A stretch of 64,000 nucleotides of DNA from Aedes albopictus (Eukaryota; Arthropoda; Insecta; Diptera; Culicidae): assembly GCF_035046485.1 (NCBI RefSeq), contig NC_085137.1:340804505-340868504 (forward strand), written 5' to 3'. The notes beneath the pieces were generated by a model. That model ran no database searches, was not told where the DNA came from, and worked only from the letters and a program-made list of their open reading frames with translations. The translations under genes and the position numbers were made by a program. Within the stretch, counting starts at the first letter, position 1; each line of letters begins with the position of its first letter. Shown here piece by piece: positions 12,131-53,611 of the stretch.

Positions 12131-12269
12131 TCCAAAATTGCAGCTTTTTGTTATGGTGAAATGGGAGAGCGTCCAGGTGCATTTTTGACTCGCATTTTTG
12201 AGATCTCGTCATCCACAAAACGCCCAAAAACGAAAATGCTACTCAATGTGAGCAAGGCTCTCTCTCTTT

Positions 12270-12472
12270 GCTTGGCGTAACGTCCTCACTGGGACAAAGC
12301 CTGCTTCTCAGCTTAGTGTTCTATGAGCACTTCCACAGTTTTTAACTGAGAGCTTCCTCTGCCAATGACCATTTTGCATGTGTATATCGTGTGGCAGGCA
12401 CGAAGATACTCTATGCCCAAGGAAGTCAAGGAAATTTCCTTTACGAAAAGATCCTGGACCGACCGGGAATGA
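12270..12472 (-). mobile_element. Feilai-type SINE, 5'-truncated
   Basis: Reverse complement of the 3' three-quarters of the SINE complete at 23309-23584 and 32005-32287. It includes the TTGGCGTAACGTCCTCACTG tail region, GTTCTATGAGCACTTCCACAG, CCAATGACCATTTTGCATGT, the GATACTCTATGCCCAAGG block and GATCCTGGACCGACCGGGAA. It breaks off inside box B, so the internal promoter is lost. Confidence 0.85.
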
Positions 12473-19644: not shown

Positions 19645-22430
19645 TTTCCAAAGGAATTTCTCCATAAATTTCCGATGTAATTCCACCAGGAATTTTGCGA
19701 AGGAATTCCTTCAGGATTTTCCGAATGAATTCCTCCATGTATTTCCGAGGGAAATACTCCAGGAACTTCCGGAGAAATTCCTCCCAGAAATTTCGGAAAA
19801 ATTCCTCCACAAATTTCTGGAGGAATTACTCTAGGAATTTCCGGAGGAATTCCTCCAGGAATTTCCGAAGGAATTTTCAAGGGAATTCCTCTTGGAATTT
19901 TCAAAGGATTTCCTCCTGGAATTTCCGAAGGAATTCCTTCATGAATGTTCGAAGAAATCCCTCCATGAATTTTCGAAGGAATTCCTCCATGAATTGCCGA
20001 ACAAATTCCTCCTCGAATTTTTCCAAGGAATTTCTGAAGGATTTTCCGAAGTAATGCCTCCATGAATTTCCGAAAGAATTCCTCCAGAAATTTTCCGACG
20101 GAATTCCTCTACGAATTTGCGAAGAAATTCCTCGAGGAATTTCCGGAGGAATTCCTCCAAGAATTTCCGAAAAAAATCTTCTAGGAATTTTCAAAGGAAT
20201 TCCTCTTGGAATTTTTAAAGGATGTCCTCCTGGAATTTCCGAAGGAATTCCTCCATGAATGTCCGAAGGAATTCCTCCATGAATTTCCGAATGAATTCCT
20301 CCAGGAATTTTGCGAAGGAATTTCTAAAGAATTTTCCGAAGAAATTCCTCGAGGAATTTCCGGAGGAATTCCTCCAGAAAATACCGAAGGAATTCCTCCA
20401 TGAATTTCCGAAGGAATTCCTCCAGGAATTTTGCGAAGGAAATCCTAAAGCATTTTCAGAAGGAGTTCCTCCATGAATTTCCGAAGGAATTGCTCCAGAA
20501 ATTTTCCGAAAGAATTCATTCACGAATTTCTGAAGAAATTCCTCCACGAATTTTCAAAGGAATTCCTCCAGGAATTTCCTGAGAAATTCCTCCATGAATT
20601 TCCGGATGAATTTCTTCAGAAATTTCCGGAGGAAATCCTCCAGGAATTTCCGAAGGAGATCCTCCAAGAACTTTCAAAGAAATTCCTTCTGCAATTTCCG
20701 AAGGAATTTCTCCTGGAATTTCCGAAGGAACTCCTCCTGGAATTTCCGAAGGAATTCCTGCAGTAATTTCCGGTGGAATTCCTCCAGGGATTTTCAAAGG
20801 AATTTCACCTGGAATTTTCAAAGGATTTCCTGACGGAATTTCTGAAGGAATTCTTTCATGAATGTCCGAAGGAATTCCACCAGGAATTTTCGAAAGAATT
20901 TCTCCAGGAATTCCTTCACGAATTTCCGAAGGAATTCCTCCATAAATTTCAGAAGGAATTCCTCCAGGACTTTTGCGAAGGAATCGCTCAAGGATTTTCT
21001 GAAGAAATTCCTCCATGAATTTCCGAAGGAATTACTCCAGGAATTCCCGAAGGAAATCCTCCACGAATTCTCGAAGGAATTCCTGCAAGAATTTCCGAGG
21101 GAACTCCTCCAGGATTTTCCCGAAGAATTCCTCCATGAGTTTCCGGAGGAATTTGTCCAGGAATTTCCGTAGGAATTCCTCCAGGAATTTTCAAAGGATT
21201 TTTTCCTGCATTTCCGAAGGAATTCCTCTACGAATTTCCATAGAAATCCCTCCCGGAATTTCCAAAGAAATTTCTTATGGATTTGCCTTGAAATACCTCC
21301 AAAAATTTCCGAATGAATTCCTCCAAAAATTTTTGACGGTTGTCCTCAAAAAATTTCCTTAGGATTTTCTCACATAATCCCCAAACGTGTTTCTGAACGA
21401 ATGTTTGAAGAAGTTTCTCAAGTTTTCGTAGGAGTTCCGCAATACATTTTTAAGGGAATTTCTTGAGGAATTTCCGACGAATCTTCTCAAGGATCTTTCG
21501 CTGGAATTCCTTGAGGAATTTCGTAGAGATTTATAAAAAAAAACCGAAAAACAATCCTCAACGAACTTATCAAAAAATTTCTCACGAAATTTCCGAAGGT
21601 ATTCCATAAGACATTTCAGACATATGTCAAAAAAATTTCCAAACGAACTCCTTTAACAATTTCCGAATTTTTCTTATCAAGGCATTTTTAAAGGAATTCT
21701 TCAAAGAATTTCCGAATGAGTTCCTCTAGGAAATAAAAAAAAATCACAAAAAGCATTTCTTCAGGAATTTCCGAAATATTTTTTCAAGGAAGTTTTGAAA
21801 GATTTTTAAAGAAATTCCTTATGGAATTTCAGAAGGGATATCTCATGAGACTTTTAGTGGAATTCTTTCAATATTTTCGAAAGAATTGCTTCAGGAATTT
21901 GGGAAGGAATTCTCACAGAAATTTCCGGATGAATTCCTCCAAGAATTTTTGAAGGTATTCCTCAAGGAATTTTCGGAAAAATTCCTCACGAAAACTCCGA
22001 AGGAGTTCCTCAAGGAATATTCTAAATCTATTTCAAAGAAATTCCTCAAGGAATTCCCGAAGAATCTTCTAAAGGAAATCGTAGAAGAATTCTCGAAGGA
22101 ATGTCTTATGGAATTCCTCAAGGAGCTTTAGAAATGCAGGAATTCCTCAAGAAATTTCTGAAGAATTTGTCGAGGAATTTCCGGTGGAATTTCTCAAGGA
22201 TTTTCGAAATAAATTCCTGAAATTATTTTTTAATTGATTCCTTTAAAAATTTCCGAATACATTCCTCTAGTAACTTCCAAAGATATTCCTCCAGGAATTT
22301 CCGAAGGAATTCCTCTAGAAATTTTCAAAGATTTTTTTCCGGTAATTCCGAAGGAATTAATTAAAGGATTTTTCGAAGAAATTTCTCCAAAAATTTCTTA
22401 GGGTATTCCTCAAGAAAAGGAATATTAGTT
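19645..22430 (-). repeat. right arm of 24-bp satellite, opposite orientation
   Basis: The top-strand consensus becomes CCTCCAGGAATT followed by TCCGAAGGAATT, the reverse complement of the left arm. The switch is a 15-bp perfect inverted pair, GGAGAAATTCCTTTG (19626-19640) and its complement (19649-19663), around an 8-bp spacer. Units decay progressively after about 21300 and become hard to follow past 22430. Confidence 0.9.
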
Positions 22431-23308: not shown

Positions 23309-23584
23309 CCCATATAGCCGAGGCGGTAAACGCACGGGTATTCAGCATGACCATGCTGAGGGTGACGGGTTCGATTCCCGGTCGGTCCAGGATCTTTTCG
23401 TAAAGGAAATTTCCTTGACTTCCTTGGGCATAGAGTATCTTCGTGCCTGCCACACGATATACACATGCAAAATGGTCATTGGCAGAGGAAGCTCTCAGTT
23501 AATAACTGTGGAAGTGCTCATAGAACACTAAGCTGAGAAGCAGGCTTTGTCCCAGTGAGGACGTTACGCCAAGAAGAAGAAGAA
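23309..23584 (+). mobile_element. Feilai-type SINE, full length
   Basis: Starts at CCATATAGCCGAGGCGG (box A TAGCCGAGGCGGTAAACGCA), then box B GGTTCGATTCC. The tRNA-unrelated body has CTTGGGCATAGAGTATC and ATGGTCATTGGCAGAGG, and the 3' end is an AAGAAGAAGAAG tail. Flanked by a 12-bp duplication GTCCCAAAGAGG (23297-23308 and 23585-23596), which marks target-primed insertion. Nearly identical to 32005-32287, so insertion was probably recent. The host is the 5' region of a LINE relic. Confidence 0.92.
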
Positions 23585-26454: not shown

Positions 26455-27114
26455 GGGTAACGGTCGAATTTTGGACCCCTAGAGGACATTAGTTTGGATT
26501 TAGGCTGAAATCAAACAGATTCCGAGAGTGTTACACATAATGATGATGTTGGTATGGCCGTAAAAGCCCCCACTGTCCGTTGAAAATACCCACAAGGTTA
26601 TATCTGGCTGAAAATTTGATGAAAATAACTGATTTTTGAAGCATCAGTTTTCACTGTTTTGGACACCCTAATGTATTTTGGACCCTCTTAAGTATATATT
26701 TTGGACATCCGGTGTTTTAACCCGCTTGAAACTATTTTCGAAGATTCTACCACTTGAGTATGCTGGATCACATTCTTATTACTTGATTGACAAAGGCTGA
26801 TTAGACGAATTTTGCGAATTTAGTGCGCTAGATTGAAAAACGTTTTTGTTTACAAATGCAAGTTTCCCCAGCACCACATTCTCTTTTGGTAAACATACCG
26901 CGACGCTCGCACGGGTGACGAGATTAACGAAAATTAATTTCAAGGCAAATAATGATATTTCCAGTGAGGAAATGCTTGCCGCTCGTGCAGAACAGTAAAA
27001 TTTAGCGAATGATTCTAAAAATTTTCATCATCTCTTCATTAAATCTGTGAAAGTTATGATAATACGACCCAGGGGGTCCAAAATATATGGGGGTCCAAAT
27101 TATATTGGTTACCC
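26455..27114. mobile_element. TA-flanked TIR element, 660 bp
   Basis: Left end GGGTAACGGTCGAATTTTGG; right end, reverse-complemented, GGGTAACCAATATAATTTGG. Flanked by TA at 26453-26454 and 27115-27116. Intact monomers nearby read CACACTACTGACTG, whereas here the sequence is CACACTA-element-TACTGACTG. The unoccupied site is therefore known and the duplication is TA, as in Tc1/mariner-type MITEs. Internal copies of TTTTGGACCCTC and TTTTGGACATCC occur. Confidence 0.88.
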
Positions 27115-27116
27115 TA

Positions 27117-27575
27117 CTGACTGCTTGGCGTCCCGTCGTCGGAGCCCGCAGAGAAAAGAGAAAAAATCGCAAAAATCTAGCAGAGCCAGCGCGCGATGCT
27201 TTGCTGCTGCCGAACTACCGCACACTACTGACTGCTTGGCGTCCCGTCGTCGGAACTCGCAGAGAAAAGAGAAAAACTCGCAAAAATCTAGCAAAGCGAG
27301 CGCGCGATGCTTTGCTGCTGCCGAACTAGAACTACCGCACACTACTGGCTGCTTGGCGTCCCGTCGTCGGAGCCCGCAGAGAAAAGAGAAAAAAATCGCA
27401 AAAATCTAGCAAAGCCAGCGCGCGATGCTTTGCTGCTGCCGAACTAGAACTACCGCACACTACTGACTGCTTGGCGTCCCGTCGTCGGAGCCCGCAGAGA
27501 AAAGAGAAAAAATCGCAAAAATCTAGCAAAGCCAGCGCGCGATGCTTTGCTGCTGCCGAACTACCGCACACTCTT
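27117..27575 (-). repeat. four tandem monomers of about 115 bp
   Basis: Units run CTGACTGCTTGGCGTCCCGT, CGTCGGAGCCCGCAGAGAAA, AGAGAAAAAATCGCAAAAAT, CTAGCAAAGCCAGCGCGCGA and TGCTTTGCTGCTGCCGAACT, ending CCGCACACTA. Unit lengths differ by a few bases (an extra AGAACT in some). They lie at the 5' end of the minus-strand retro-insertion, like promoter monomers of some LINEs. The periodic ORF (DCLASRRRSPQRKEK) shifts frame between units. Confidence 0.88.
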
Positions 27576-27606: not shown

Positions 27607-29690
27607 GATACATATTCAAAAATAAATCCAGCAGGAATTTCTTTAGAATTTTGTGCTTAACATTTTAAAGAGACCATCCAAGGAGGCATCCAATTCGTCC
27701 ACAAATTACTGCAGACATGGATTCCTTCAGATTTTTTCCCCGGATACCTACACAAAATCTTCCAGGAGTTCGTTTAGAAGACTCTCCTGGGATCATGCGC
27801 GTAACTACAGCACATTTGGCTCATCAGCTCCAACGTCGTGCTCGCTTGCTATGCATTACAGCCAGCGTGCTTGACATTGGAGCTGAGGGGCCATATGCTC
27901 TGTAGTTACGCACATGCCTGGGATTTCGTTAGAAATTGCTCATGCAATTGCTTCCGGGCTCCTCTTGGGGTTTCTTCACATAATCTTCCAGGTATTTCTT
28001 CAATAACGGGAAATTATTCTGGGATTTTTTCAGGAACAAATTCAGGCATTATTTTAAAAATCCCTACAAGAATTCTTCTAGGAACTTTTCTTGAGATTTC
28101 TTCAGGAATTCCTACAGGATGCGGGAATCATTCTGGGGTTTCTTCAGGAAATCATCTAGGAATTTCTCAAGGAATCCACCAGGAATTCATCCGGAAATTC
28201 ATCGAGGCATTCCTCCAGGCATTCTAGGGCAGTCCACCAGGGATTCCTCTATTGCTCCAGGCATTTCTCCAGGAATTGCTCCAGGAATTTCTCCAGGCTT
28301 CCACTAGAGATTTTTCCAGGAATTGCTCCGGAGATTCCTCAAGGAATTCCTCTAGAGATTCGTCCATTAATTCCTACAGGCATGTCTCTGGGAATTTCTT
28401 CAGGAATACAACCAGAAATTGCTCCAGGGCTTATTCCAGGAATTCCTCAAGGATTTCCAGCAGGGATTCCTCCAGAGGTTCTTCTTCCAGAAATTGCTTC
28501 AAGGATTCCTTCAGGAATTCTTACAGGTGTTTCTGCAGGATTTTTTCAGGAACCCCTCCAGACATCCTTCAGGCATTCCTCCAGGAATTTCTCCAGGGAT
28601 TTCTGGACGGATTTCTACAGGATTTTATCCAGGAATTTCTTCAGGAATTCTCCCAGAAATTCCTCCAGAAATTCCTTCAGAAATTTCTCAGGTATTCCGC
28701 CAGGAATTGATCCAAAGATTCCGCAGGCATTCCATCAGGACTTCCTCCACGGATCCCTTCAAAACTTTTCCCTTGGATTCCTTCACGGATACCTCCAAGA
28801 TTCTGCCAGAAATTGATCCAGAAATTCTCCCAGGAATTCCTCCAGGAATTCCTCCAGAAAATCCAGAAAAATTGTTCCAGGTATTCATTCAGAAATTGCT
28901 CCAGGGATTCCTCCGGGCAATCCCCTAGAGATTTTTCCCCTATTCCTAGAGATTCCTCCAGGAAGTCCTACATGTCTCCAGAAATTTCTTTAGGGATTCA
29001 TCCAGGAATTGCTTCAGGACCTCCTCCAGGAATTCCACAAGGAATTCATGCAGGGATTTCTCTTCGGATTCTTCCAGGAATTCTTCCAAGGCCTCCTCCA
29101 GGGATTCTTCCAGCGGTTCCTACAGCAAATCAGCTAGGAATTCCTCCCAAAATGTATTTGAAAATTCATCCAGGAATTCCTTCGGGGATATCTCCACAGA
29201 TTCTTCTTGAAATATCTTCTAGGATTTCAGGTTTTCCTTTAGGTATTTCTACAGGAATTATTTAAGAAGCGCCTCCAGGAATTTCTCAAACAGTTCTTCC
29301 AGGGGTTGCTCCAGGGGTTTTTCCAGGAATTCCTGCAGGGATTTCTCTGGGGATTCCTCCCGGAATTCCTTTGGGCATTCGTCCAGGGTTTTTGTTTTCT
29401 CTAGAGAAATTTCCCCATGAGTGGAGAACTCCTCCAAGCATTCCTCTATCAATTATCCCAGGAATTTCTCCACGAATTCCTTCCAAAATTCCGACAGCAA
29501 TTTCTTCAGGAATTCCTCCAGTTTTTTTATCCACCAATACCTCCAGGTACTTCTCCAGGAATTCTTCCAAGAATTCTTCTAGGAATTCAAAAAATGCTCC
29601 AGGAATTTCTTATGGAATCCCTTCAGAAATTCTTACAGCGATTTCTCCAAGAATTTCTCTAGGGAATACTCCTAGGAGCATTTGTTCAAC
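27607..29690 (+). repeat. 12-bp satellite array AGGAATTNCTCC, about 2.1 kb
   Basis: Dense tandem array of AGGAATTTCTCC, AGGAATTGCTCC and AGGAATTCCTCC words on the top strand, strongest at 28080-29680. The 12-mer is the same as one half of the 24-bp unit in the giant hAT element. Here I see no strand switch and no flanking TIR. ORFs in it (up to 169 codons) are periodicity artefacts. Confidence 0.88.
27794..27916. mobile_element. palindromic MITE with 8-bp duplication, 123 bp
   Basis: Ends CATGCGCGTAACTACAG and, reverse-complemented, CATGTGCGTAACTACAG. Arms pair on through TCAGCTCCAA. Flanked by perfect CCTGGGAT at 27786-27793 and 27917-27924, inside the 12-bp satellite. The 8-bp duplication suggests hAT-like mobilisation. 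Confidence 0.85.
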
Positions 29691-31706: not shown

Positions 31707-32559
31707 CCGTAATCCGGGGTCAAATTGATCACTATAAAACAACTTTTGCCGATAGCATTAGTAGCAATTCAAATATTGCCAAAAGAATTTCTGTAAAATC
31801 AGTACCCAGTGGATCTCCATGAAACCATGTGACAAAATTTTGTTTAACATATTCAAACTTTGAGTTAAATAACTCCAAAAATCAAAAAATTGAAAATTTC
31901 ATTAGGGGCGAAATTGATCAACAAATCAACATACAATTAAGCATCGGGTAGAAATAAAAATGGTCTTCTCTGTTTAATTTTGCTCTTCTTAACCCGAATA
32001 ACGCAGGGCCATATAGCCGAGGCGGTAAACGCACGGGTATTCAGCATGACCATGCTGAGGGTGACGGGTTCGATTCCCGGTCGGTCCAGGATCTTTTCGT
32101 AAAGGAAATTTCCTTGACTTCCTTGGGCATAGAGTATCTTCGTGCCTGCCACACGATATACACATGCAAAATGGTCATTGGCAGAGGAAGCTCTCAGTTA
32201 AAAACTGTGGAAGTGCTCATAGAACACTAAGCTGAGAAAGCAGGCTTTGTCCCAGTGAGGACGTTACGCCAAGAAGAGGAGAGGAGGAACCCGAATAACG
32301 CGTTAAAACTCTTACAACTAGTGAATTTCACACTCAAAATGCAAAATTATTTTCTGAAATTTCCCCCTAAACGCCTAAAGGTAGGCAATTTCCTTTGAAA
32401 TATGTGATTTGTATCACAATAAATGACTATTTCATAAAAACATAATGAGGTAAGAAGTTTATGATCATTACGACGCTTAGAAGTTCCTAGTATGAAATTA
32501 CTATTTAATACCCGAATGATCAATTTCACCCCGCTGATCCATTAGACTCCGGTTTACGG
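31707..32559. mobile_element. CCGTAATCCGGGGT TIR element, split by a Feilai SINE
   Basis: Left end CCGTAATCCGGGGTCAAATT; right end, reverse-complemented, CCGTAAACCGGAGTC followed by CCCCG and TGAAATTGATCA. The right flank is TA; the left flank is TT, so one duplicate may be mutated. The same family is better preserved at 58135-58961. The Feilai insertion at 32005-32287 is younger. Confidence 0.65.
32005..32287 (+). mobile_element. Feilai-type SINE, full length
   Basis: Starts AGGGCCATATAGCCGAGGCG, with box A and box B intact, the full body, and an AGAAGAGGAGAGGAGG tail. Flanked by a 14-bp perfect duplication AACCCGAATAACGC (31991-32004 and 32288-32301). Nearly identical to 23309-23584. Confidence 0.93.
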
Positions 32560-39899: not shown

Positions 39900-41080
39900 C
39901 CCGGGTAGAGATGAAGTACTGACGATCAAAACGTGATATTAGTTTGACTAGTTTGATAAGAGATAAAAGATCTGAAAGTAATACCGTCAAGGCGCCAGTC
40001 ACCGTGTGCCCTTCAATATTTTTTTTTATTATTTCCATATTACGATTGAATGGTATGACAATTTCCCTCCAAATTCACCAATACAACACTAATGAATCGT
40101 TACCATGTCAAAACGCTCATTAGGAACTTTTAAGAGTATCATTTTGACACTAACGTGTGTTTACATGAAGCGGGTTTCTGCTCGTTCACTGCATTCATAG
40201 TGAAGAAACGAAAACTGCCCTAAGGTGATTTAAGCGATAAACTAAATGTAGTAACGTTTTTATTCCACCAAGAAGCAATTAAATTCACATATCAGATATG
40301 TATTTTACATTACCGAAGCAAGTTTAACAAGAAAGTACGATTACTCGTACTTTTTAATTGAAACAAAAGAGCACGGTAAATGGATACCCTAAAAATCAAT
40401 GGTCTCCATTCACCGTGCCACATATTGTCCCATAAACCTAGAAAAAAAATGAAAATATTAACATTCGTTTCTCTAATAAAATCTTGCAAGTTATAACTTG
40501 AAATGAATATAAACGAAGAAAATTCCCTTGGCTGGGTTGTGTTGATCATTTTTAAACAAAATAGAATAAATTTTCTCATACACGGTGAATGGGTCCCTAC
40601 TACCACGGTGAATGGTGACCTAGCACAGAATCAGGCGACCTTACTACCCTCTACTAATTGTACTATATCAATAAATTTTGTGAAAAATTTTCTACTTATG
40701 TGGATATTACTTTAATTTTAACCTATAATGAAGGCAATTAAAAGCGGCACTAACAATGTTTATAATACTGGTGTCAAATGACAGCCCTTATTCGCACTGA
40801 ATCCTCTTAGATCTACGGTGAATGGTGCTTTGACGGTATCTGAAAAATGTTCCTGAATCATCTGCACAATATCAAAATTTGATATTTCAAGATCAAACTA
40901 ATAGCTCGATGCTATTGGTTGGATCTTACAAAATCTCAACATGATATGATGGTGATGTTTCAGGAGTAATATCTCAAGTTTACTCCTAGATCCTTTATCT
41001 CATATATAAATCAAACCAATATAATTTTTTGGTCTTCATATCAAAATATGCTATTATTCAGATATTCTCCTCTACTCGGG
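39900..41080. mobile_element. CCCGGGTAGAG TIR element, 1181 bp, hosting a second element
   Basis: Ends CCCGGGTAGAG and, reverse-complemented, CCCGAGTAGAG, inserted in the 31-bp tandem tract. AT is present on both sides and agrees with the unoccupied unit (TCATATTCAAGTG), but such a short duplication is weak evidence. Inner sequences GATATTAGTTTGA and TCAAACCAATATAA hint at sub-terminal pairing. A TA element is nested at 39984-40836. Confidence 0.65.
39984..40836. mobile_element. nested TA element, CCGTCAAGGCGCCA ends, 853 bp
   Basis: Left end CCGTCAAGGCGCCAGTCACC; right end, reverse-complemented, CCGTCAAAGCACCATTCACC. Flanked by TA (39982-39983; 40837-40838). CACGGTGAATGG-like words recur internally near 40400, 40580, 40605 and 40815. 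No transposase ORF. Confidence 0.82.
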
Positions 41081-41084
41081 ATTT

Positions 41085-41241
41085 AAATGATCGAAGTTTG
41101 ATTCTGTGATATGATTCGAGTGATTCAGATCCGATTCACTTCATATTCAAGTAATTTAGGACTAATTTACTTGACATTCAAGTGATTATGATTTGATTTA
41201 CATCATATTCAAGTGATTCAGGTCTGGTTTACATTATATTC
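41085..41241 (+). repeat. 31-bp tandem repeat CATATTCAAGTGATTC, part 2
   Basis: Four to five units, ending at the TATTC duplicated by the Transib-type insertion at 41242. Confidence 0.8.
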
Positions 41242-42185
41242 CACAATGGTTTATTTTCCCATTTTCACGCTCTTAATTAATAGCTCGTAAGATTGAGGAA
41301 AAAGAACAATAGTGTCTTCGGCAAAATTGACGGGAATGACCAGCGCCATCTTTTGACAGTTAGAGTTTTCGGATCGATCCCCCTAAAAGTGAGATACAAA
41401 ATTATTTTTTTTTTAATTTGTTGAGATAGAGGGTTGACGTCTTCGGCAAAGTTGTAGCATTTTTGATTCCAAACAACTTTCCTGAAGACGTCAATGTTGT
41501 ATTTTTTTACACTAATGGAGATAGAGGCCTGTGTTTGAAAGTCAGCCCCAAAAACACGTTTTTAAGTAAAACATACATTTGTTGAATTTTTAGGCCCATA
41601 CAATGTTCTGCAAAGTTGTATGTATCAATAAAATACGCAACTTTGCCGAAGACATCGAAGCTGTGAGAATTAAATGAGACGAGTTATAGATAAATTTATG
41701 ATTTTTTTCATCCACTTTTAGGGATAAATATCATTCTTAGGGGCAAAAAGGTGCTGCTGAGGGAGGATACCCTTATCAGAAAGTACATCTAAAGAGCTTT
41801 CAAATAAGGGTTAGTTTGTCCGTCCACGATCGTCTACTGAGAAGATATGACCATAATAAAAATGTCCATACTACAATTATTTGCAATCAAATCTACTTTG
41901 CTTAGCTTAGACTGAGCTTAGACTGACTGCACATATCTATGGTTGCTACTCCGTGATTGACTCGAACCAATGACAGTTGCACAATGAATCAACTTAATAA
42001 TTGACTGGGAGTGGTCAACATTCTCACTGTGCCCGCTTCAGAGGCTCTCAGTACAATAACGGCGCCGACCACGTCCTTGCAGTCAGGTTGGAAGAGTGAA
42101 GGAATGTTAATAGCAACCTTTGTTATGTGAAAGTTGGCGTTTACCGCACGTCTCCACCAAAGGCTGTAGGAAGGAGTGATTGTTA

Positions 42186-42591
42186 CCCGAGCAGGAACGA
42201 ATAACTGACACATAACTGCAGCATACCAAAGTCAGGTATCATACTGAGACAAGGTATTGGTCGGCTATCCAGGTATTGAAAATAACTTATTTTGGTATTT
42301 TGTAGGTATTGATAAAATACCTCAACAAGTCATTGGTTTGATGTTGAGGACTGCTTGAGGTATTATTCAATTATGCAAATATCGCTATTTGTATAGAAAA
42401 ATCGCCGATTATGGTTTAGGTATTGCAATACCTGATGTCATTATTCTCTAGTTATGCACAGAATACACTCCAGTTATTATTTGAGGTATTTTACCTCTTA
42501 TGCAGGGCAAATTAATACCTCATCCTGGTTGTAGGTATTGGGTTTTCCATACCTGAGTTTGTTATTCTTCAGCTATTTTCTCCTGCTCGGG
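42186..42591. mobile_element. CCCGAGCAGGA MITE, 406 bp, TA-flanked
   Basis: Ends CCCGAGCAGGAACGAATAAC and, reverse-complemented, CCCGAGCAGGAGAAAATAGC, flanked by TA (42184-42185; 42592-42593). The interior repeats GGTATT words (AGGTATTG, GAGGTATT) many times. It is nested in the retro-insertion 41901-43389. Confidence 0.85.
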
Positions 42592-42649
42592 TAGTAGGGC
42601 AGGTATCGTTGGGTCAGGATTCACTTTGATAAGTAATATGACCTTTTGA

Positions 42650-43060
42650 AGTTGAAGTATGCCGTGCACACTGCAGTGATGTTGTTCGCTTCACGCGGAA
42701 AGCAAACAACCAACCACCCTCGTCAGGTGGTTGCTCAATATTTACTACAAATGAAGCAACAAAATATGCAGACGGAAGTGCTATTGTTAACATCACGCGG
42801 AAAGCAAACAATCCACCACCCATGTCAGGTGATCGTTTAATATTTACTATTAAAGACGCGACAACATATACAAACTTAAGCGCTATTGCTCACTCGGCGC
42901 GGAAAGCAAACAATCAGCCACCCGCGTCAGGTGGACACTCAAGATTTACAACAAAAGACGTGACGAAACATGCGACATGTGACGACTGATGCGCTATTGC
43001 TCGCTTCACTAGGAAAGCAAACAATCGACCACCCACGTAAGGTGATCGCTCAATATTTAT
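42650..43060 (-). repeat. four tandem units of about 104 bp
   Basis: Units share GCGGAAAGCAAACAA, CCACCCRYGTCAGGTG, GCTCAATATTTACTA and GCGCTATTGCTC at about 42695, 42797, 42899 and 43005. They occupy the 5' half of the minus-strand retro-insertion, as the monomers at 27117-27575 do in its counterpart. Confidence 0.82.
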
Positions 43061-44640
43061 TCATAAAAATACATACCACAATATTACATGGACAGATACA
43101 TAGAAAAACAGTATGTCGTTAAGAGATTGCACAAAAAATAAATGAAATTCAATAAAAAGAAGAGATAATTTGTAAGATGCCATCCCGAAAAGTGACAAAA
43201 TGGAACAAGAAAAGAGGACATTATAAATATATGGTATAAAATTTAATTAATACAAAAATTGATGTAGAATCCATAGAAAGAGAATAACAAGGAACAAACT
43301 CACCGGAAAGTCGCCTGCCATCAATCGAACTAAAAATGCGAAACGAAAAAATCTGGCCTCCAGCTGCCGAGCCGTCACTACACACACTCTATTTGCAATC
43401 AAATCTACTTTGACAGAAAAATTCATGGCTACTATGATGAAATATAAGTTAAACCCGCTTTCGTCTTATCTTACAGAAGAACTCGTGAATAGTTTTACTC
43501 TGTGAGAGCGTATGAAACCCCGATAAATCTTAATATTTTATTCAATGAAGGAGATTTGTACTAAACAATAGAAACATATAAAAAGGCTGTGGAAAACATT
43601 TTTTAGAACAAATTTGGTATTTAAAACAATTAGTACTGTTGCGCAAATTAGCTTAAAGAAGGCTACCTATTAGTTGATCATAGTAGCCATTAAATTAACT
43701 GTCAACGTAGATTTAAATGCAGGTAAATCGTAAATGGACATTTTTTATTATGGTCATATCTCCTCAGTAGACGATCGTGGACGGACAAACTAACTCTTAT
43801 TTGAAAGCTCTTTAGATGTACTTTCTGGTAAGGGTATCCTCCCTCAGCTGCACCATTTTGCCCCTAAGGGCCGATTTCTTCGCCGGGTAAAACATCCGTT
43901 GAAATTTTAGTAGGAAAAGCGGAATCGCTCGGTAAATTTTTCGGATGCAGAAGGAAATTAACAATCATGAACTACCTAGAGACTGTTGATATTTTACCCA
44001 ACGCTAGTATCGACATTGCAGAAAAGACGTTGCAATGTTGATTCTATGTTTTGATATCCAGAATCGCTATTGCCGTGACAACTCTGGTTGTGGATCAAAC
44101 AATTGCATTTTGATTCATAATACAACCGAAATCAGTAGCTTTATGAATCATATTGCAATTTTTTGGTATAGGTAGTACAAAAAACTAGTCCGTTGTGATA
44201 CGGCAACCAAATTTCATAGTGTAGAGTTGTAAAAAGATATTTAAAATCCACTTGTGTCATTTTTAGGTAGTGGAACTTATGTATAAAATTTATAAATATA
44301 ATTAGTCATTAGTCATTCATACTTATAGTAGTAGGGTGAATCGCCAATTGTTGCAATTGTTGTTAACTTCAATTGTCCTTACATGACACGGTTTGTTGAG
44401 GAAACGTATTAGTATTCACAAGCCAATCGCATACCAGAAGGGCATTATGGGTACTCTTTAAGGAGAAACTTCAGAGTATACAAATATGGCTGCCACAATG
44501 GCCGACTTGGATCCCTGCTCACGTTTTCAAGAGCACAAATTTTAAAAATTCGTAAACAAATGTGCTAAATTTGCTTTTTCATCAGATTTGTGCCTCTAAA
44601 CTTTGTATGCAAAATTGCAATGGGATTTCTTGATGTTTCA

Positions 44641-44775
44641 CCTTAAACAGATTAAATTACTGCTTAAGCCATGATTTCCTGCTTATTTGAAATGTTTCAT
44701 GATTTTGCGAATGAGATGATCAAAGATTGCATTGGTGATCGCGACGTTTAATCAGTTTACGCTGTTAAGTGAGTC
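44641..44775. repeat. dispersed 135-bp element, copy 1
   Basis: CTTAAACAGATTAAATTACT to CAGTTTACGCTGTTAAGTGA. A paralogue with a few substitutions is at 59506-59640. The ends (TTAAACAG and CTGTTAAG) are short inverted repeats, so it may be a small MITE. Confidence 0.7.
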
Positions 44776-44950
44776 CCCCTATTCTTTTTACATGGTAAAT
44801 TTTTCATGTAATACAAGTATTTGGAATTGAAAAACCGGGAAATATTTGGTAATCGTACTGGGAAAACCGGAAAAAAGAAGTAAATTTCAAAACTGAAATT
44901 GGCCACCCTGAAGAAAAAGCCTGCCGATAATATCCAATGTCACCCTATTA

Positions 44951-45114
44951 GGCAGCATCCATTTATTACGTAACGCCAAAATCGACATTTTTCGACCCTC
45001 CCCCCCTCCGTAACGCTTTTTTGCATGAAACCTTACAATTTTTGTATGGGCTGTAACGCTTGACCATACTCTCTCCCTCTCCCAAGAGCGTTACGTAATT
45101 TGTGGATGGCGCCT
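44951..45114. mobile_element. TA MITE, 164 bp (GGCAGCATCCATTTATTACG)
   Basis: Ends GGCAGCATCCATTTATTACG and, reverse-complemented, AGGCGCCATCCACAAATTAC with GTAACGC on both arms. Flanked by TA (44949-44950; 45115-45116). C-runs (CCCTCCCCCCCTCCG) lie inside the left arm. Confidence 0.82.
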
Positions 45115-46349
45115 TAGGTATTCAAAATAAGTAATGTTTAGAAGTACACCACGAATAATACTTTTTATATTTAAAATTATGAGTCAAAATGTTGAATATT
45201 CGATGGGCTAAACGTGCTTTGAACTAAGTTTTTTGTAAGAAATCAGTGTATAAAAAGTTATTACAAGATTTTTTCTTGAGTGCTTGAACCATAACAGACA
45301 AACATATGTTTATTGTGACCTAAAATTATGGAAGCACCGGATTAAAATAAATAAAAACTTTAATGCGAATGTAATTTCGACTTCCAAATCAGGATGACAA
45401 ATTTCCAAAACTATCAACACTATGCCTTTTTGAAGACTTTCAATCTAATGTAAAAACTTAATTGTCCCAAAAACCGATGTTGCATTCATTATATTGACGA
45501 CGCGCTGGCTGTAGATTATCATTTTCTTTATTATCACCTCCATCCGTATCCAAACGTTTTACAATTGTATCGTTCCTAAGTGTTCATGTTTTATAAAAAA
45601 TATTTTTTGCTGTTTTAAAAATGTATCCATGAATCAGGTGAAGAAACCCAAACTCTGCAATTTGCGGCTTAAGCCTGGCTTATCTCTGCTAAGCCACCTC
45701 AGAGCACCGCTTAAAATAAGCCACGCTTAACGTAAATCGTAGCTTTATTAAACCGGGTTTAGTGGTTAAGCCAAGGTGAAGAAATCGAAAAAAAGCTAAG
45801 CCCAGCTTAACATTTTGCTAAGCCTGGTTTAAAATTTAAGCCCGGGTGAAGAAATCGGCCCTAAGAAAGATATTTATCCCTAAAAGTGGATGAAAAAATC
45901 ATAAATTTATCTATAACTCGTCTTATTTAATTCCCACAGCTTCGAAGTCGTCGGCAAAGTTGCGTATTTTATTGATACATACAACTTTGCAGACCATTGT
46001 ATGGGCCTAAAAATTCAACAAATGTATATTTTACTTAAAAATGTGTTGTTGGGGCTAACTTTCAAACACAGGCCTCTATCTCCATTGGTGTAAAAATACA
46101 ACACTGACGTCTTCAGAAAAGTTGTTTGGAATCAAAAATGCTACAACTTTGCCAAAGACAACTTTGCTACAACTCAACAAATAAAAAAAAAATGTATCTC
46201 ACTTTTAGGGGGATTGATCCGAAAACTCTAACTGTCAAAAGATGGCGCTGGTCATTCCCGTCAACTTTGCCGAAAACACCATTGCTCTATTTCCTCAATC
46301 TTACGAGTTATTAATTAAGAGCGTGAAAATGGGAAAATAAACCATTGTG

Positions 46350-46430
46350 TATTCATGTGATTCACTTCATATTCAAGTGATTCCATTTTATGAACAATTT
46401 ATTCTAGTCGGATCAATTTTATATTCAAAT
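46350..46430 (+). repeat. 31-bp tandem repeat CATATTCAAGTGATTC, part 3
   Basis: The continuation of the array after the Transib-type insertion; the first bases are the TATTC duplicate. Units degrade after 46430. Confidence 0.75.
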
Positions 46431-46870
46431 GAATCAGGCTTGATTATTATTTTTATCTTATCAGGATCGCGAAGTAGAACTTCTTAAACAGGTCAAAATT
46501 TACATACCCACTAGCTCCACTTAGGGGCAAAACTTTGAACTAATTCCTGCCTATCGTATGCTAATGGCATTCTGAACAGCTTTGCCGAAGGCACGAATCG
46601 TCTATATAATCAAGATCGTGAGCACTACCTTCTGAAAAACTTTTCCGAAGACTTGAATTTTCTATCTTATCGTGATCGCGACTCGCGAGATAAAGCTGGT
46701 TAAGCATGTTCATTTGTACATACCCACTAGTGTAACCTAGCGCCAGAATTGCGAACCAAACTGTTTGTCTTTAAGATGTCAACGACCTTCTGAACAACTT
46801 TGCAGAAGACTGTACCTTAGCTGATTATCAGAATTTCGAGATACAGCAGCACGAATTTACTAATTTTCAG
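46431..46870. repeat. compound repeat with TTTGCCGAAG modules
   Basis: TACATACCCACTAG occurs about 217 bp apart (near 46501 and 46718), with CTTCTGAACAACTTTGCMGAAG-like blocks at about 46570, 46630 and 46785 and TTATCRKGATCGCGA between them. The TTTGCCGAAG word is also in both Transib-type elements and in 60754-61452. Confidence 0.6.
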
Positions 46871-48530: not shown

Positions 48531-48535
48531 CAGTG

Positions 48536-50241
48536 CACAATGGTCCCAGGTCCGAATCTAGCTAGACAAAATTATTTACGGCGAAACTATTGATTTTAGC
48601 TATATGGTGTCTTTGGGAAAGTTTTTCCAAAATTTGTGTCCTATTTAGTCAATAAATTGAAATTAGGGTGGTCCAAATGGTTTAAAAGATTTGTATATCA
48701 ACTTTTTTGTTTTTCCAAATACACCTATACAATGTTCTACAAAGTTTTAGAACAAATAATTTGGAGCAACTTTGCCGAAGAAACCAACCTCCTAACTATT
48801 ACGGTTGACGAGTTATGATTTTTTGAAGCTTAGATGTTAGGGTGGACCTTAAAAAATCAGTTTTTTGCTTATAACTTTTCATAGGGACATTTCTCGCAAA
48901 AACGTTGTTCCGAGCACTTTTAGATCTTTTGATTTTACACTTTTTCTCCGAAGAGGGCAATGTTATATCTCTTGAAATAAGAAAGTTGTGCAAGATTTTC
49001 TCTTAAAAATCGCTTTTCTTACATGTAAATATTTCAGAATGGCGCAAACCGATTTTCAATCTTTTAAATCCATTCAAAAGATCTCACTTTCATTGTTCGA
49101 TGGTGAAAAAATAAAAGAAGTGTTTTTTGTTTAAAGCGCTTAATTAATTTTTGAAAATATGTCATTTTTCATCAAAAAATGGCCATAACTTCAAGAATAT
49201 ACAAAATACAGGTATGATGTCTTCGGCAAAAAGGTGCGCAATTGAATGCTTTAAAATTGTCTAGAACTAAGTTTTTTTGAAGAATCAACACATAAAAACA
49301 TATTTAAAAAAAATGGATTTTTAACTAAAAAATAAACACTATCAACGTTTCAAAGAACCTTCTGTCAATGCTACCCTAATGAAAGGTTCCATACTTTTCT
49401 TTCTATGTTGGATTTCTAAAAACAATCGATTAGTATGCATATACTTAATATTTTGGTTTATTGAGCTTAGAACAAATAAAAATTAAAACTACATATCTTT
49501 TCAATTCAATTCAAAATAACAAGTTCTTGAGCTTTGGCTGGAAGAGAGTTTAAAGGAGAATCGCTGCTTTTCCTATTCATCAAGGAAATCACTGGATCGG
49601 ATGTTAGAAGCAAACGTTGGAAGACGTCTTCGATGTTTGCCGTTCTGCTGAATTTCCTGGAGTGGAATTCTCGGAACTTTCTGATAGACTTGTTCCGGGT
49701 TTCCAGTGCTTCCTCGCTCAACATTCTAACAGGAACAATACTGTGCTTCGCGATGGCACCGCCGTGGACCAAAATTTTGTGGAGAGTTGGAGACAGCGGA
49801 TACCAACCATATAGGCTAGAATAAATTATTATTATTATCCAATTCCATTATTATTAGTTTTATTATTATTATATGTCAAACTACATCTTACCTGATATAA
49901 AGTTTCCTAGTCGTTTCCAAGTAGTTTTGGAATACTTCCACGTTGATATCACTCTTACAGTTGATAATAACTAGAATGATGTACATTCTCTCCAGTAGAT
50001 CTTCATTCAACCCCGTAATTTCGCAGATTGTACGCCATTCTTTGAAAAACGTTCGTGAGGTATTACCATCATTGCTGTTGCCACCGCTCGGTAACGGTTC
50101 GCTAATTCTGAGCCCTAGTCTTCGTTTTATTTCGGCTCGAATGGTGGCTTCTCGTTGACGGACAGCTTCGTTAGACTTCGCTACGCGCCATGTCGGTTTT
50201 TCCATTTTTAGTCGATATGCTACCTTAAGAAACAGTTCCAT
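48536..50241 (-). repeat. left Transib arm (inverted copy of 51898-53606)
   Basis: Reverse complement of the right arm with scattered substitutions. From the outside it contains the terminal 40 bp, about 0.9 kb of non-coding sub-terminal DNA with CTTTGCCGAAGA and CTTCGGCAAA words, the mirrored polyadenylation region, and a mirrored 3' half of the transposase gene. The inner limit is at the ATGGAAC codons: beyond ACAATGG the two sides diverge completely. Confidence 0.93.
49506..50241 (-). pseudogene. inverted duplicate of transposase exon 3 end and exon 4
   Basis: Encodes, on the minus strand, the MELFLKVAYRL segment to the intron at KLYI (49888-50241), then an intron and the last exon (VHGGAIAKHS to KAQELVILN, 49506-49815). 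Splice sites appear preserved. It lacks the 5' half with the first two catalytic aspartates. Amino-acid differences from the functional copy include K for E, T for K, I for T, R for G and S for N. Read-through from the left flank would place this antisense copy and the sense copy in the same transcript. Confidence 0.9.
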
Positions 50242-50367
50242 TGTAGATCAAAGTAGACTAGATCAAAGTAGCCTAGTTCAAAGAAGCCTAGTCAGCAGAG
50301 CATGATTTTCTGCATGCATGCTGTTGAATTTTGGTTAGTGCGTTATCGTTCCACAGAAAAAAGCAAG
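50242..50367 (+). promoter_or_regulatory. short unique 5' leader of the transposase gene
   Basis: Only 126 bp separate the left arm from the start codon. GATCAAAGTAGACTA and variants (GATCAAAGTAGCCTAG, TTCAAAGAAGCCTAG) occur as three near-tandem copies at 50245-50290. An initiator-like TTAGTGCG lies near 50335. No TATA box is evident. Promoter function is inferred from position only. Confidence 0.4.
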
Positions 50368-52633
50368 ATGTCAGTTGGTAAGTTACAGAATTTCTCAACT
50401 TTTGAAGTAGATTCCCTAACTAAATTTTCCACCAGGTCTTAAAGTCGCCTTCCATGAATTGGCTGAACAATTCATTACCGATAGTTCTACAACATCCTTG
50501 TGTCAGTACGTTATTGACAAGTTCCAGGGCAAAACAATTGATACTGCAGAACTTCAAAAGAAAATTAGCTTTTTCGCACTCAAATTCACAACAGCATGGA
50601 AAAAGGGCAACCGGAAAAGAGACCGTTTCTTTGAGCGCAACAAAATTTGGTTGAGTGGGTTTGAAACTTTCAAAGAACTTCCGATGTCGAACACCAAGAG
50701 AGGGCGTCCGCGTAAATCATTTGAAACCTCAAGCACAAAATCGAAGCAGCGAAAAGTTCATGATATCAGCGTCGAAGTTCCGTATCAGGAGTTGATGTTT
50801 GCAGCGGCAACAAGAGCCACAAGTTCCGGACATAGAGATGCGGCAAAGATCATCAAAAATATTTCTGAATTTCCAGAAACCGCCACTAGCTTGAAGCAAT
50901 CTATGAAGTCTTGTGATGCCGGAGTGGAGCAGTATTCACCGACTGAAGCTTTGGCATTCATTTGTAAGAACGGATTTTCCAAGAGTCAATACAATGACAT
51001 TCGTGCATCGGATTTGAAGAAAGGGTGTGATTTGTATCCGTCCTACAATCGGGTTTTGGAGGAAAAGAAGCTGACGTATCCTGAAGGTAATTTCTATTTC
51101 ATTAGATAGGGCCCATTCATACACTATAAAGGCATCACAAAACATCTTTTCTATTATCTAACATGATCGAAATGAATCTATGTTGCTTATGGACAGATAA
51201 TTATGGGAATGCAAAAATAGTCATGAGATATTCATAATTTTCAGGTATTACGATAAAACCATCAGCAGCCGAAGTTCCCCTCCAATCCCTAGTTGACCAC
51301 ACAAACAAACGCTTAATAGAAAGCCATAGAAGTATTCTTGCTGGTTCGGCTTGTAATACGTTTGAGATTAACTATAAGTGGGGCTGCGATGGCAGTAGCA
51401 ATCACTCTCGCTATAAGCAAAACTTTGTTGAAACGGATGAAGACGGTGAATTACGAGAGTACAATGATTCACACATATTTTCGATGGCTCTTGTTCCTCT
51501 CCAATTAATTGGAAGAATCTCAGAGCACGAACGAGATATTTTTTGGAAAAATGATCTACCTTCTTCCGTTTCGTTGTGCAGACCGATCAAGCTAATTTTT
51601 TTGAAGGAATCTGCTCAGCTAACGCGAAATGAAGTTGAGAAAGTGCGAGATCAAATAAAAAATCTGAGGCCAACTGAAATTCTTCAAGACGGTCGGACAA
51701 TTACTGTATATTCTTCGTTAATTCTAAGTATGATGGATACTAAGGTAGTAAACGACCTCACAGAAACAAACTCGCAATCCTGCTCATTTTGTGGGAAAAG
51801 CGGAAAGAATCTGAATGACGCAACCAACGATCTGAACGAGACCAACGCTGAAAAGTTCTCTCGTGGATTCTCCCCTCTCCATTGCTATATTCGGACAATG
51901 GAACTGTTTCTTAAGGTAGCATATCGACTAGAAATGGAAAAACCGACATGGCGCGTAGCGAAGTCTAACGAAGCTGTCCGTCAACGAGAAGCCACCATTC
52001 GAGCCGAAATAAAACGAAGACTAGGGCTCAGAATTAGCGAACCGTTACCGAGCGGTGGCAACAGCAATGATGGTAATACCTCACGAAAGTTCTTCAAAGA
52101 ATGGCGTACAATCTGCGAAATTACGGGGTTGAATGAAGATCTACTGGAGAGAATGTACATCATTCTAGTTATTATCAACTGTAAGAGTGATATCAACGTG
52201 GAAGTATTCCAAAACTACTTGGAAACGACTAGGAAACTTTATATCAGGTAAGATGTAGTTTGACATATAATAATAATAAAACTAATAATAATGGAATTGG
52301 ATAATAATAATAATTTATTCTAGCCTATATGGTTGGTATCCGCTGTCTCCAACTCTCCACAAAATTTTGGTCCACGGCGGTGCCATCGCGAAGCACAGTA
52401 CTGTTCCTGTTGGAATGTTGAGCGAGGAAGCACTGGAGACCCGGAACAAGTCTATCAGAAAGTTCCGAGAATTCCACTCCAGGAAATTCAGCAGAACGGC
52501 AAACATCGAAGACGTCTTCCAACGTTTGCTTCTAACATCCGATCCAGTGATTTCCTTGATGAATAGGAAAAACAGCGATTCTCCTTTAAACTCTCTTCCA
52601 GCCAAAGCTCAAGAACTTGTTATTTTGAATTGA
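50368..52633 (+). CDS. Transib transposase (RAG1 core relative), four exons, apparently intact
   Basis: Exons 50368-50377, 50436-51086, 51245-52247 and 52324-52633 join in frame to 657 codons plus stop; introns of 58, 158 and 76 bp have GT-AG ends. The start ATG (MSVG) lies just after the leader, with the first intron after codon three and one base. In order: an N-terminal region, a basic KRGRPRK motif (91-97) like the GRPR of the RAG1 nonamer-binding domain, a WGCDGSSNHSRYKQ block with the first catalytic Asp (D269), ALVPLQL and PSSVSLCRPIKL, MMD with the second Asp (D385), a zinc-binding CSFC pair (C400, C403), NSNDGNTSRKFF, LYGWYPLSPTLHKIL, and LSEEALETRNK with the catalytic Glu (E589) before SRKFSRTANIEDVF and LLLTSDPVIS. 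It should bind the CACAATG ends and carry out nick-hairpin excision and 5-bp staggered insertion in the nucleus. MMDT replaces the commoner MxDG, the only odd residue near the active site. Activity is inferred, not shown. Confidence 0.93.
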
Positions 52634-53606
52634 ATTGAAAAGATATGTAGTTTTAATTTTTATTTGTTCTAAGCTCAATAAACCAAAATATTAAGTATAT
52701 GCATACTAATCGATTGTTTTTAGAAATCCAACATAGAAAGAAAAGTATGGAACCTTTCATTAGGGTAGCATTGACAGAAGGTTCTTTGAAACGTTGATAG
52801 TGTTTATTTTTTAGTTAAAAATCCATTTTTTTTAAAATATGTTTTTATGTGTTGATTCTTCAAAAAAACTTAGTTCTAGACAATTTTAAAGCATTCAATT
52901 GCGCACCTTTTTGCCGAAGACATTATACCTGTATTTTGTATATTCTTGAAGTTATGGCCATTTTTTGATGAAAAATGACATATTTTCAAAAATTAATTAA
53001 GCGCTTTAAACAAAAAACACTTCTTTTATTTTTTCACCATCGAACAATGAAAGTGAGATCTTTTGAATGGATTTAAAAGATTGAAAATCGGTTTGCGCCA
53101 TTCTGAAATATTTACATGTAAGAAAAGCGATTTTTCAAGAGAAAATCTTGCATAACTTTCTTATTTCAAGAGATATAACATTGCCCTCTTCGGAGAAAAA
53201 GTGTAAAATCAAAAGATCTAAAAGTGCTCGGAACAACGTTTTTGCGAGAAATGTCCCTATGAAAAGTTATAAGCAAAAAACTGATTTTTTTAAGGTCCAC
53301 CCTAACATCCAAGCTTCAAAAAATCATAACTCGTCAACCGTAATAGTTAGGAGGTTGGTTTCTTCGGCAAAGTTGCTCTAAATTAATTGTTCTAAAACTT
53401 TGTAGAACATTGTATAGGTGTATTTGGAAAAACAAAAAAGTTGATATACAAATCTTTTAAACCATTTGGAGCACCCTAATTTCAATTTATTGACTAAATA
53501 GGACACACATTTTGGAAAAACTTTCCCAAAGACACCATATAGCTAAAATCAATAGTTTCGCCGTAAATAATTTTGTCTAGCTAGATTCGGACCTGGGACC
53601 ATTGTG
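51898..53606 (+). repeat. right Transib arm
   Basis: Contains the 3' half of the functional transposase gene, starting at the internal ATGGAACTGTTTC, its last intron and exon, the polyadenylation signal, about 0.9 kb of non-coding DNA and the terminal CACAATGG (on the minus strand). Pairs along its length with 48536-50241. Confidence 0.93.
52677..52682 (+). terminator. polyadenylation signal AATAAA of the transposase gene
   Basis: AATAAA 44 nt after the stop codon, at a usual distance for a compact transposon transcript. A mirror copy is in the left arm. Confidence 0.7.
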
Positions 53607-53611
53607 CAGTG

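What the first reader, a model, noticed from the sequence alone, without database searches (positions are those of the whole stretch)
48536..53606. Intact Transib transposon whose terminal inverted repeats are 1.7 kb and engulf half of its own transposase gene
Seen: CACAATGG ends, a perfect CAGTG target duplication, an uninterrupted four-exon 657-aa transposase, and two arms (48536-50241 and 51898-53606) that are near-identical inverted copies. Known: Transib, the RAG1 relative, usually has short TIRs, tens of bp. Here the right arm includes the 3' half of the coding region (third-exon end, last intron, last exon, polyA signal). The transposon therefore carries its active 3' end once in sense and once in antisense. 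Few differences between arms and an intact gene imply that it is young. A Transib of this layout is, to my knowledge, not described.
Basis: partly seen in the sequence, partly recalled or inferred. Interest (0 to 1): 0.87.

Follow-up and report, generated by a model that had tools for sequence, protein, structure and literature searches.

The report
Transposon whose ends swallowed its gene
A jumping gene of the Asian tiger mosquito, related to the enzyme that assembles our antibody genes, has mirror-image ends so long that they include the last third of its own gene, and copies of that form sit in at least five places in the genome.

Summary
48536-53606 is a 5071-bp Transib transposon with CACAATGG ends, a CAGTG duplication, an open four-exon 657-aa transposase and 1.7-kb inverted arms (14 mismatches, 3 one-base gaps). 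The right arm holds 219 of 657 codons: a third, not half. One answered search of the host genome (Aedes albopictus, 1.34 Gb) showed that the layout is not private: 5 of 18 analysed copies, on three contigs, share the identical inner junction, each with its own perfect 5-bp duplication. The other 13 have an ancestral layout, mostly with ~0.9-kb non-coding inverted repeats, so long, nearly identical ends are old here. In the derived form the left repeat gained ~820 bp copied from the right side, joined with about 1 nt of homology. Arms of a copy share derived variants, most simply by gene conversion, so arm identity does not date the element. Full-length genes are open in two extended copies (this one included) and in two identical ancestral-layout copies. 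TIR extension is known from Galileo and Mu killer; I found no Transib case in the papers searched. A regulatory role (hairpin RNA, 219-aa divergent ORF) is untested.

The parts
48531..48535 (.). left target site duplication CAGTG
48536..53606 (+). Transib element, extended-arm form, 5071 bp
48536..50244 (-). left arm: inverted copy of the right arm
   Evidence: 1709 bp, 99.0% to the right arm
48536..49424 (.). part of the left arm that corresponds to the ancestral TIR (element positions 1-889)
   Evidence: ancestral-layout copies match here and then leave the window sequence
49425..50244 (-). extension, about 820 bp, absent from the left side of the ancestral layout
49506..50241 (-). two-exon open frame in the left arm, 219 aa (residues M439-N657), first codon 3 bp inside the junction; expression unknown
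   Evidence: open in 5 of 5 extended copies
50244..50245 (.). inner left junction, between these bases (the T at 50244 can belong to either side)
   Evidence: identical in 5 of 5 extended copies
50244..50291 (+). 15-bp tandem repeat, 3.2 units; such units are also in the ancestral layout
50245..50367 (.). 123 bp between the left arm and the transposase ATG; probable promoter (inferred)
50368..52633 (+). transposase gene, four exons, 657 aa; catalytic D269, D385, E593
51895..53606 (+). right arm: end of exon 3, intron 3, exon 4, 3' UTR, terminus
52712..53606 (+). ancestral right TIR, about 895 bp
53607..53611 (.). right target site duplication CAGTG

Best explanation
It is a cut-and-paste Transib transposon of Aedes albopictus. 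Its ancestor had two non-coding ~0.9-kb inverted repeats outside the gene. Once, during repair of a break (most likely the gap left by excision), the left end copied from the homologous right repeat, ran ~820 bp past it through the 3' UTR, exon 4, intron 3 and the end of exon 3, and was then joined to a 15-bp repeat upstream of the gene with about 1 nt of homology; the left-specific DNA in between (roughly 170-185 bp in most ancestral-layout copies) was lost. The gene stayed whole, the terminal sequence stayed the same, and the rearranged element went on transposing: five analysed loci carry it. Since then the two arms of a copy have converted each other. SHOWN: layout, ancestral form, junction, five insertions with TSDs, derived variants shared by both arms, two open full-length genes of this form. 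INFERRED: break repair as the cause, conversion as the process, the promoter, current activity.
For: Same junction and own 5-bp TSDs at 5 of 5 extended copies (window, L009-L012; CAGTG, CAGTG, CATTG, CAATG, CATTG; different flanks). Ancestral layout in 13 of 18: mostly ~890-895-bp TIRs, then left-specific DNA, then AGATCAAAG; on the right both forms read alike at this place. Transposase matches HzTransib 6pqn, E 5.1e-82; D269 and D385 in 65 of 65 and 69 of 69 relatives with a letter there, E593 in 60 of 61 (71 relatives). Derived variants shared by both arms of a copy: window 3, L009 6, L010 5, L011 2, L012 3; one is in L009 alone, others in nested sets of copies. Outer (889 bp: 7 mismatches, 3 gaps) and inner (820 bp: 7 mismatches) parts of the window's arms diverge alike. 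Four copies have 0-4 private substitutions in 3.3 kb against 9-38 in 11 ancestral-layout copies.
Against: No excision or transcription was observed, and no reads were seen. The repair event is not seen; a fusion of two copies gives the same product. In the tree of the shared 3' region L012 does not group with the other four (internal branches near zero), so its common origin rests on the identical junction; if L012 were a separate event, its three variants shared by both arms would need no conversion. Some shared variants also occur in ancestral-layout copies (alignment columns 775, 783), and exchange with other copies is possible. Extended copies are not the only young or intact ones: two ancestral-layout copies, identical over 4802 bp with different TSDs, are open too, so open genes are 2 of 5 against 2 of 13. 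Private-substitution contrast P = 0.052, and the low counts partly reflect that the four are close kin. Only 40 of 864 candidates were scored.
Confidence: 0.72

Rival explanations
1. Fusion of two copies: two elements lay head to head, a deletion joined the gene middle of one to the upstream repeat of the other, and the outer ends then moved as one unit.
For: Gives exactly the same product; the arms could have differed from the start. The family is multicopy, and two Transib-type elements lie 2.2 kb apart in this window.
Against: Needs two nearby inverted copies plus a deletion and then transposition of the composite; no such intermediate was seen among 18 analysed copies. The pre-existing 0.9-kb TIR homology offers a simpler route.
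Confidence: 0.2
2. Assembly artefact (inverted repeat misjoined).
For: Inverted repeats are prone to misassembly; no reads could be examined.
Against: Five loci with the same junction and perfect TSDs in different flanks; arms differ by 1 to 14 substitutions, differently in each copy.
Confidence: 0.02
3. The extended arm is kept because it regulates the element: read-through RNA folds into a 1.7-kb hairpin that makes small RNAs against the transposase, or the divergent 219-aa ORF makes a C-terminal repressor.
For: Mu killer has the same kind of partial inverted transposase duplication and silences MuDR (PMC3440606, passages; that paper finds short antisense transcripts in silencing plants rather than the proposed hairpin). 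The left ORF has an ATG 3 bp inside the junction and is open in 5 of 5 copies, even in three where the main gene is broken.
Against: All ten arm frames are open, as youth and conversion would also give; the window's arms differ by 5 non-synonymous and 2 synonymous changes, no sign of constraint; the window's left ORF has lost a glycine kept in 61 of 62 relatives. Hairpin RNA needs transcription through both arms. In Ae. aegypti the siRNA pathway is reported to have a limited effect on TE expression, but its authors say that hairpin-derived siRNAs may have been overlooked (PMC12076837, passages).
Confidence: 0.08

Closest known systems
Transib superfamily (Hztransib of Helicoverpa zea)
   Same: Homologous transposase with the D, D, E triad, 5-bp TSD; Hztransib is 3518 bp and was itself described as having long TIRs (PMC1852546, passages; the TIR length is only in a figure that is not held)
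   Different: TIRs here are mostly ~0.9 kb in the ancestral layout and 1.7 kb with coding sequence in the derived one; perfect TSDs read CANTG in 11 of 14 copies, that of Hztransib was GCTCG
Galileo (P superfamily) of Drosophila willistoni
   Same: Nearly complete copy with 765/757-bp TIRs at 99% identity; its 3' TIR overlaps 69 bp of the transposase segment, which is repeated inverted at the 5' end; three copies with extended TIRs have identical TSDs (PMC4168063, passages)
   Different: Other superfamily; much shorter coding overlap (69 bp against 219 codons plus an intron); the paper calls all characterized copies non-autonomous
Mu killer (maize MuDR derivative)
   Same: Both TIRs from one end of the parent and an inverted partial duplication of the transposase gene (PMC3440606, passages)
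   Different: Mu killer is internally deleted and silences its parent; here the gene is whole and copies of the form are at five loci with TSDs

Membership tests
Transib superfamily | RAG1-like DDE transposase homologous to Transib | tested here: met
   6pqn E 5.1e-82; RAG1 PF12940 just under its cut-off (24.7 against 25 bits). D269/D385/E593 line up with chain positions that, with an offset of 17 worked out by me, are the D126, D225, E436 published for Hztransib (PMC6941560, passage)
Transib superfamily | 5-bp target site duplication | tested here: met
   perfect in 5 of 5 extended and 9 of 13 ancestral-layout copies; L013, L015, L021, L022 not
Transib superfamily | ends beginning CAC, like the RSS heptamer | tested here: met
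Transib superfamily | RSS-like nonamer at a 12 or 23 spacer (some members only) | tested here: inconclusive
   ACAAAATTA after 23 nt, 6 of 9 with the recalled consensus; 8.4% of 20,000 shuffles do as well
   mostly ~890-895 bp in the ancestral layout, 1706-1712 bp in the extended one
Galileo-type TIR extension into the transposase | long TIRs lengthened by internal sequence that includes coding DNA, in copies with TSDs | tested here: met
Galileo / P superfamily | P-type transposase | tested here: not met
   no P-type family among the Pfam or PDB hits; the strong or nearly significant ones are Transib and RAG1
Mu killer-type silencing locus | antisense or hairpin RNA that silences the transposase | not testable with these tools
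   no RNA data

The most novel reading that the evidence does not exclude
The extended form is a self-governing transposon: its inverted third of the gene makes hairpin small RNA or a divergent C-terminal repressor that limits its own transposase, while inter-arm conversion keeps the trigger matched to the gene as both evolve, and this restraint helped this form to spread in the present genome.
Probability: 0.07. Interest if true: 0.8.

Novelty: new variant of a known kind. Interest (0 to 1): 0.5.

Why it matters
It shows, with ancestral layout, product and junction side by side, how a transposon's terminal repeats can grow into its own gene without breaking it, and that such an element can be found at several loci with intact TSDs. 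It also suggests that the two ends of one element convert each other, which spoils dating by arm identity, and it offers a natural test of whether a built-in inverted gene fragment silences a RAG1-related transposon. The bearing on V(D)J ends is small: the ends of this family were already nearly symmetric before the rearrangement.

Tried and rejected
Rejected: (1) A cryptic heptamer at the inner junction (ACAATGG resembles the terminus CACAATGG). The ancestral copies show a plain joint to AGATCAAAG with about 1 nt in common. (2) A natural breach of the 12/23 rule: the ancestral layout already has near-identical ends, and the nonamer match is weak. (3) Extended copies as the only intact lineage: dropped after the split copy L025 proved open and L026 identical to it. 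(4) Purifying selection on the 219-aa left ORF: 5 non-synonymous to 2 synonymous. No result: TIR and junction patterns in viral contigs, TIR pattern and protein in genome contigs, protein P0001 in viral contigs, right-side DNA in plasmids; fold of the promoter stretch, z -1.0. Left out of counts: the fragment L028 (one end) and the other short matches; L016 in the junction comparison, its anchor not being found; the two split copies in the tree and the private counts; L030 was fetched but not analysed. Splicing is supported by two Ae. albopictus gene models (P0077 intron 2, P0074 intron 3); intron 1 rests on its GT-AG sites. P0074 stands for a cluster of 23 members and begins at M383; its meaning was not resolved.
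Full report
What is there. 48536-53606 is flanked by CAGTG on both sides, begins and ends with CACAATGG, and consists of two arms of 1709 and 1712 bp around 1650 bp of single DNA. The arms differ by 14 substitutions and three one-base gaps; 7 of the 14 lie in the coding part. The gene has four exons and 657 codons; the right arm holds codons 439-657, a third of the gene. The left arm carries the same two exon parts on the other strand as an open 219-aa frame that starts 3 bp inside the junction.

What it is. The protein matches the solved HzTransib transposase at E 5.1e-82 and RAG1 weakly. The catalytic D269, D385 and E593 are kept in 65 of 65, 69 of 69 and 60 of 61 of the 71 relatives that have a letter there. 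Near-identical gene models come from Aedes albopictus (98-99% over 36-87% of the query), and the sequence on which one of them (P0072) lies has the same length, 518725454, as the window's contig C2, so the host is very probably that species.

Is it private? The genome search answered once: 56 matches, with 40 of 864 first-look candidates scored, so counts are lower bounds. I fetched 20 stretches and two more. Eighteen elements had both ends: the window, L009-L023 and two split by an insertion (L024/L025 with L029, and L027/L026). Five of 18 have the extended layout: window, L009, L010, L011, L012, on the chromosome-sized contigs C1, C2 and C3, 5057-5073 bp. All five have perfect TSDs in different flanks and the same inner junction to the base. 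So the arrangement has been inserted several times; it is neither a private rearrangement nor, very probably, an artefact.

What it came from. Thirteen of 18 have the ancestral layout. Nine of these are 4365-4694 bp long; four are longer. Their TIRs are mostly about 890-895 bp at 95-99% identity (with a deletion in L015 and insertions in L017, L020 and L022). Then follow on the left roughly 170-185 bp of its own in most (131 bp of it an 85% copy of TIR sequence; about 100 bp in L023), then the AGATCAAAG repeat and the gene. At the junction 10 of 11 copies compared read ...GCTGATCAAAGTAGCCT, or a further repeat unit, before AGATCAAAG; L016 lacked the anchor. In the extended form the left TIR runs on for ~820 bp as an inverted copy of the right side and joins AGATCAAAG with one shared T. 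Thus long TIRs and near-identical ends are old in this family; the extension into the gene is new.

How it behaves. Within a copy the arms differ by 14 (window), 3, 1, 3 and 12 substitutions (L009-L012). Yet both arms of a copy share derived variants that other copies lack: three in L012 alone, one in L009 alone, others in nested sets (totals for window, L009-L012: 3, 6, 5, 2, 3). If one junction means one origin, such sharing means sequence exchange after the event, most simply between the arms. If L012 were a separate event (it is unplaced in the tree), its three sites would not count, but the others would. Arm identity is then no clock. Age is better seen outside: the window, L009, L010 and L011 have 4, 2, 0 and 1 private substitutions in 3.3 kb, L012 has 17, and 11 ancestral-layout copies have 9-38 (Mann-Whitney P 0.052 for five against 11; the four are close kin, which lowers their counts). 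Against a special vigour of the extended form stand two ancestral-layout copies about 630 kb apart that are identical over 4802 bp, have different TSDs (CCTTG, CACTG) and an open gene.

Gene state. Full-length open frames: 2 of 5 extended copies (window and L011, two residues apart) and 2 of 13 ancestral-layout copies (the identical pair; L025 translated, L026 by identity). L016 is open over 638 codons, 57 nt shorter; the others have stops or shifts. All ten arm frames of the five extended copies are open, which youth and exchange explain without selection.

Mechanism. The best account is repair of a break, most likely after excision, in which the left TIR used the right one as template, copying ran past its inner edge, and the end was then joined to the upstream repeat. 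A Galileo paper invokes aborted gap repair and template switching for its variants (PMC4168063, passages). Fusion of two copies remains possible. Regulatory roles by hairpin RNA or by the 219-aa frame are untested.

Known or new. My searches were: Transib with 'long terminal inverted repeats' (0 papers), with 'long TIRs' (11 papers, of which I opened PMC1852546 only), with variants of the phrase (2 papers, neither holding Transib), with mosquito (18, three opened: PMC8355894, PMC3442997, PMC3212995), with RAG1 and TIR (49, 30 listed), Hztransib (5), Aedes/hairpin (140 with three of four terms, 25 listed) and Aedes albopictus (5, PMC7728395 opened). In those listings and passages I saw no such element; of each paper I saw only listing or passages. 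Repbase and most subscription papers could not be searched, and the 2005 Transib paper was not held. Galileo and Mu killer are close precedents in other superfamilies, so I call it a new variant of a known kind.

Noticed in passing
41242-46349: Second Transib-like element 2.2 kb away: ends CACAATGGTTTATTTTCCCA (20/20), TSD TATTC, ~500-bp TIRs at 92%, no open frame above 115 codons in 41001-46600; probably a non-autonomous relative with long TIRs.
   Followed up: partly
12 sites, e.g. 41441, 48767, 53362, 61199: Motif CTTCGGCAAAGTTG (up to 1 mismatch) 12 times in the window, mean 0.00 in shuffles; in the TIRs of both Transib elements, there also as CTTCGGCAAAGTTG-N21-ACTTTGYAGAACATTGTA, and elsewhere; meaning unknown.
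   Followed up: partly
L009-L027 (copies with perfect TSDs) and the window: Perfect TSDs of this family read CANTG in 11 of 14 copies, a target preference that resembles the last five bases of its own CACAATG heptamer.
   Followed up: partly
L025 and L026: Two ~10.4-kb ancestral-layout copies with a large insertion, about 630 kb apart on C2, identical over 4802 bp but with different TSDs: a recent jump.
   Followed up: partly
16992-21332, 27114-27563, 28251-29147: Long minisatellite arrays: 24/48-bp units around GGAATTCCTTCGGAAATTCC, a 117-bp unit, and a 12-bp unit.
   Followed up: no
12258-12470, 23374-23573, 32073-32283: A ~200-bp repeat present three times, the other two 98-99.5% identical to the first and inverted to it; perhaps a young MITE.
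   Followed up: no
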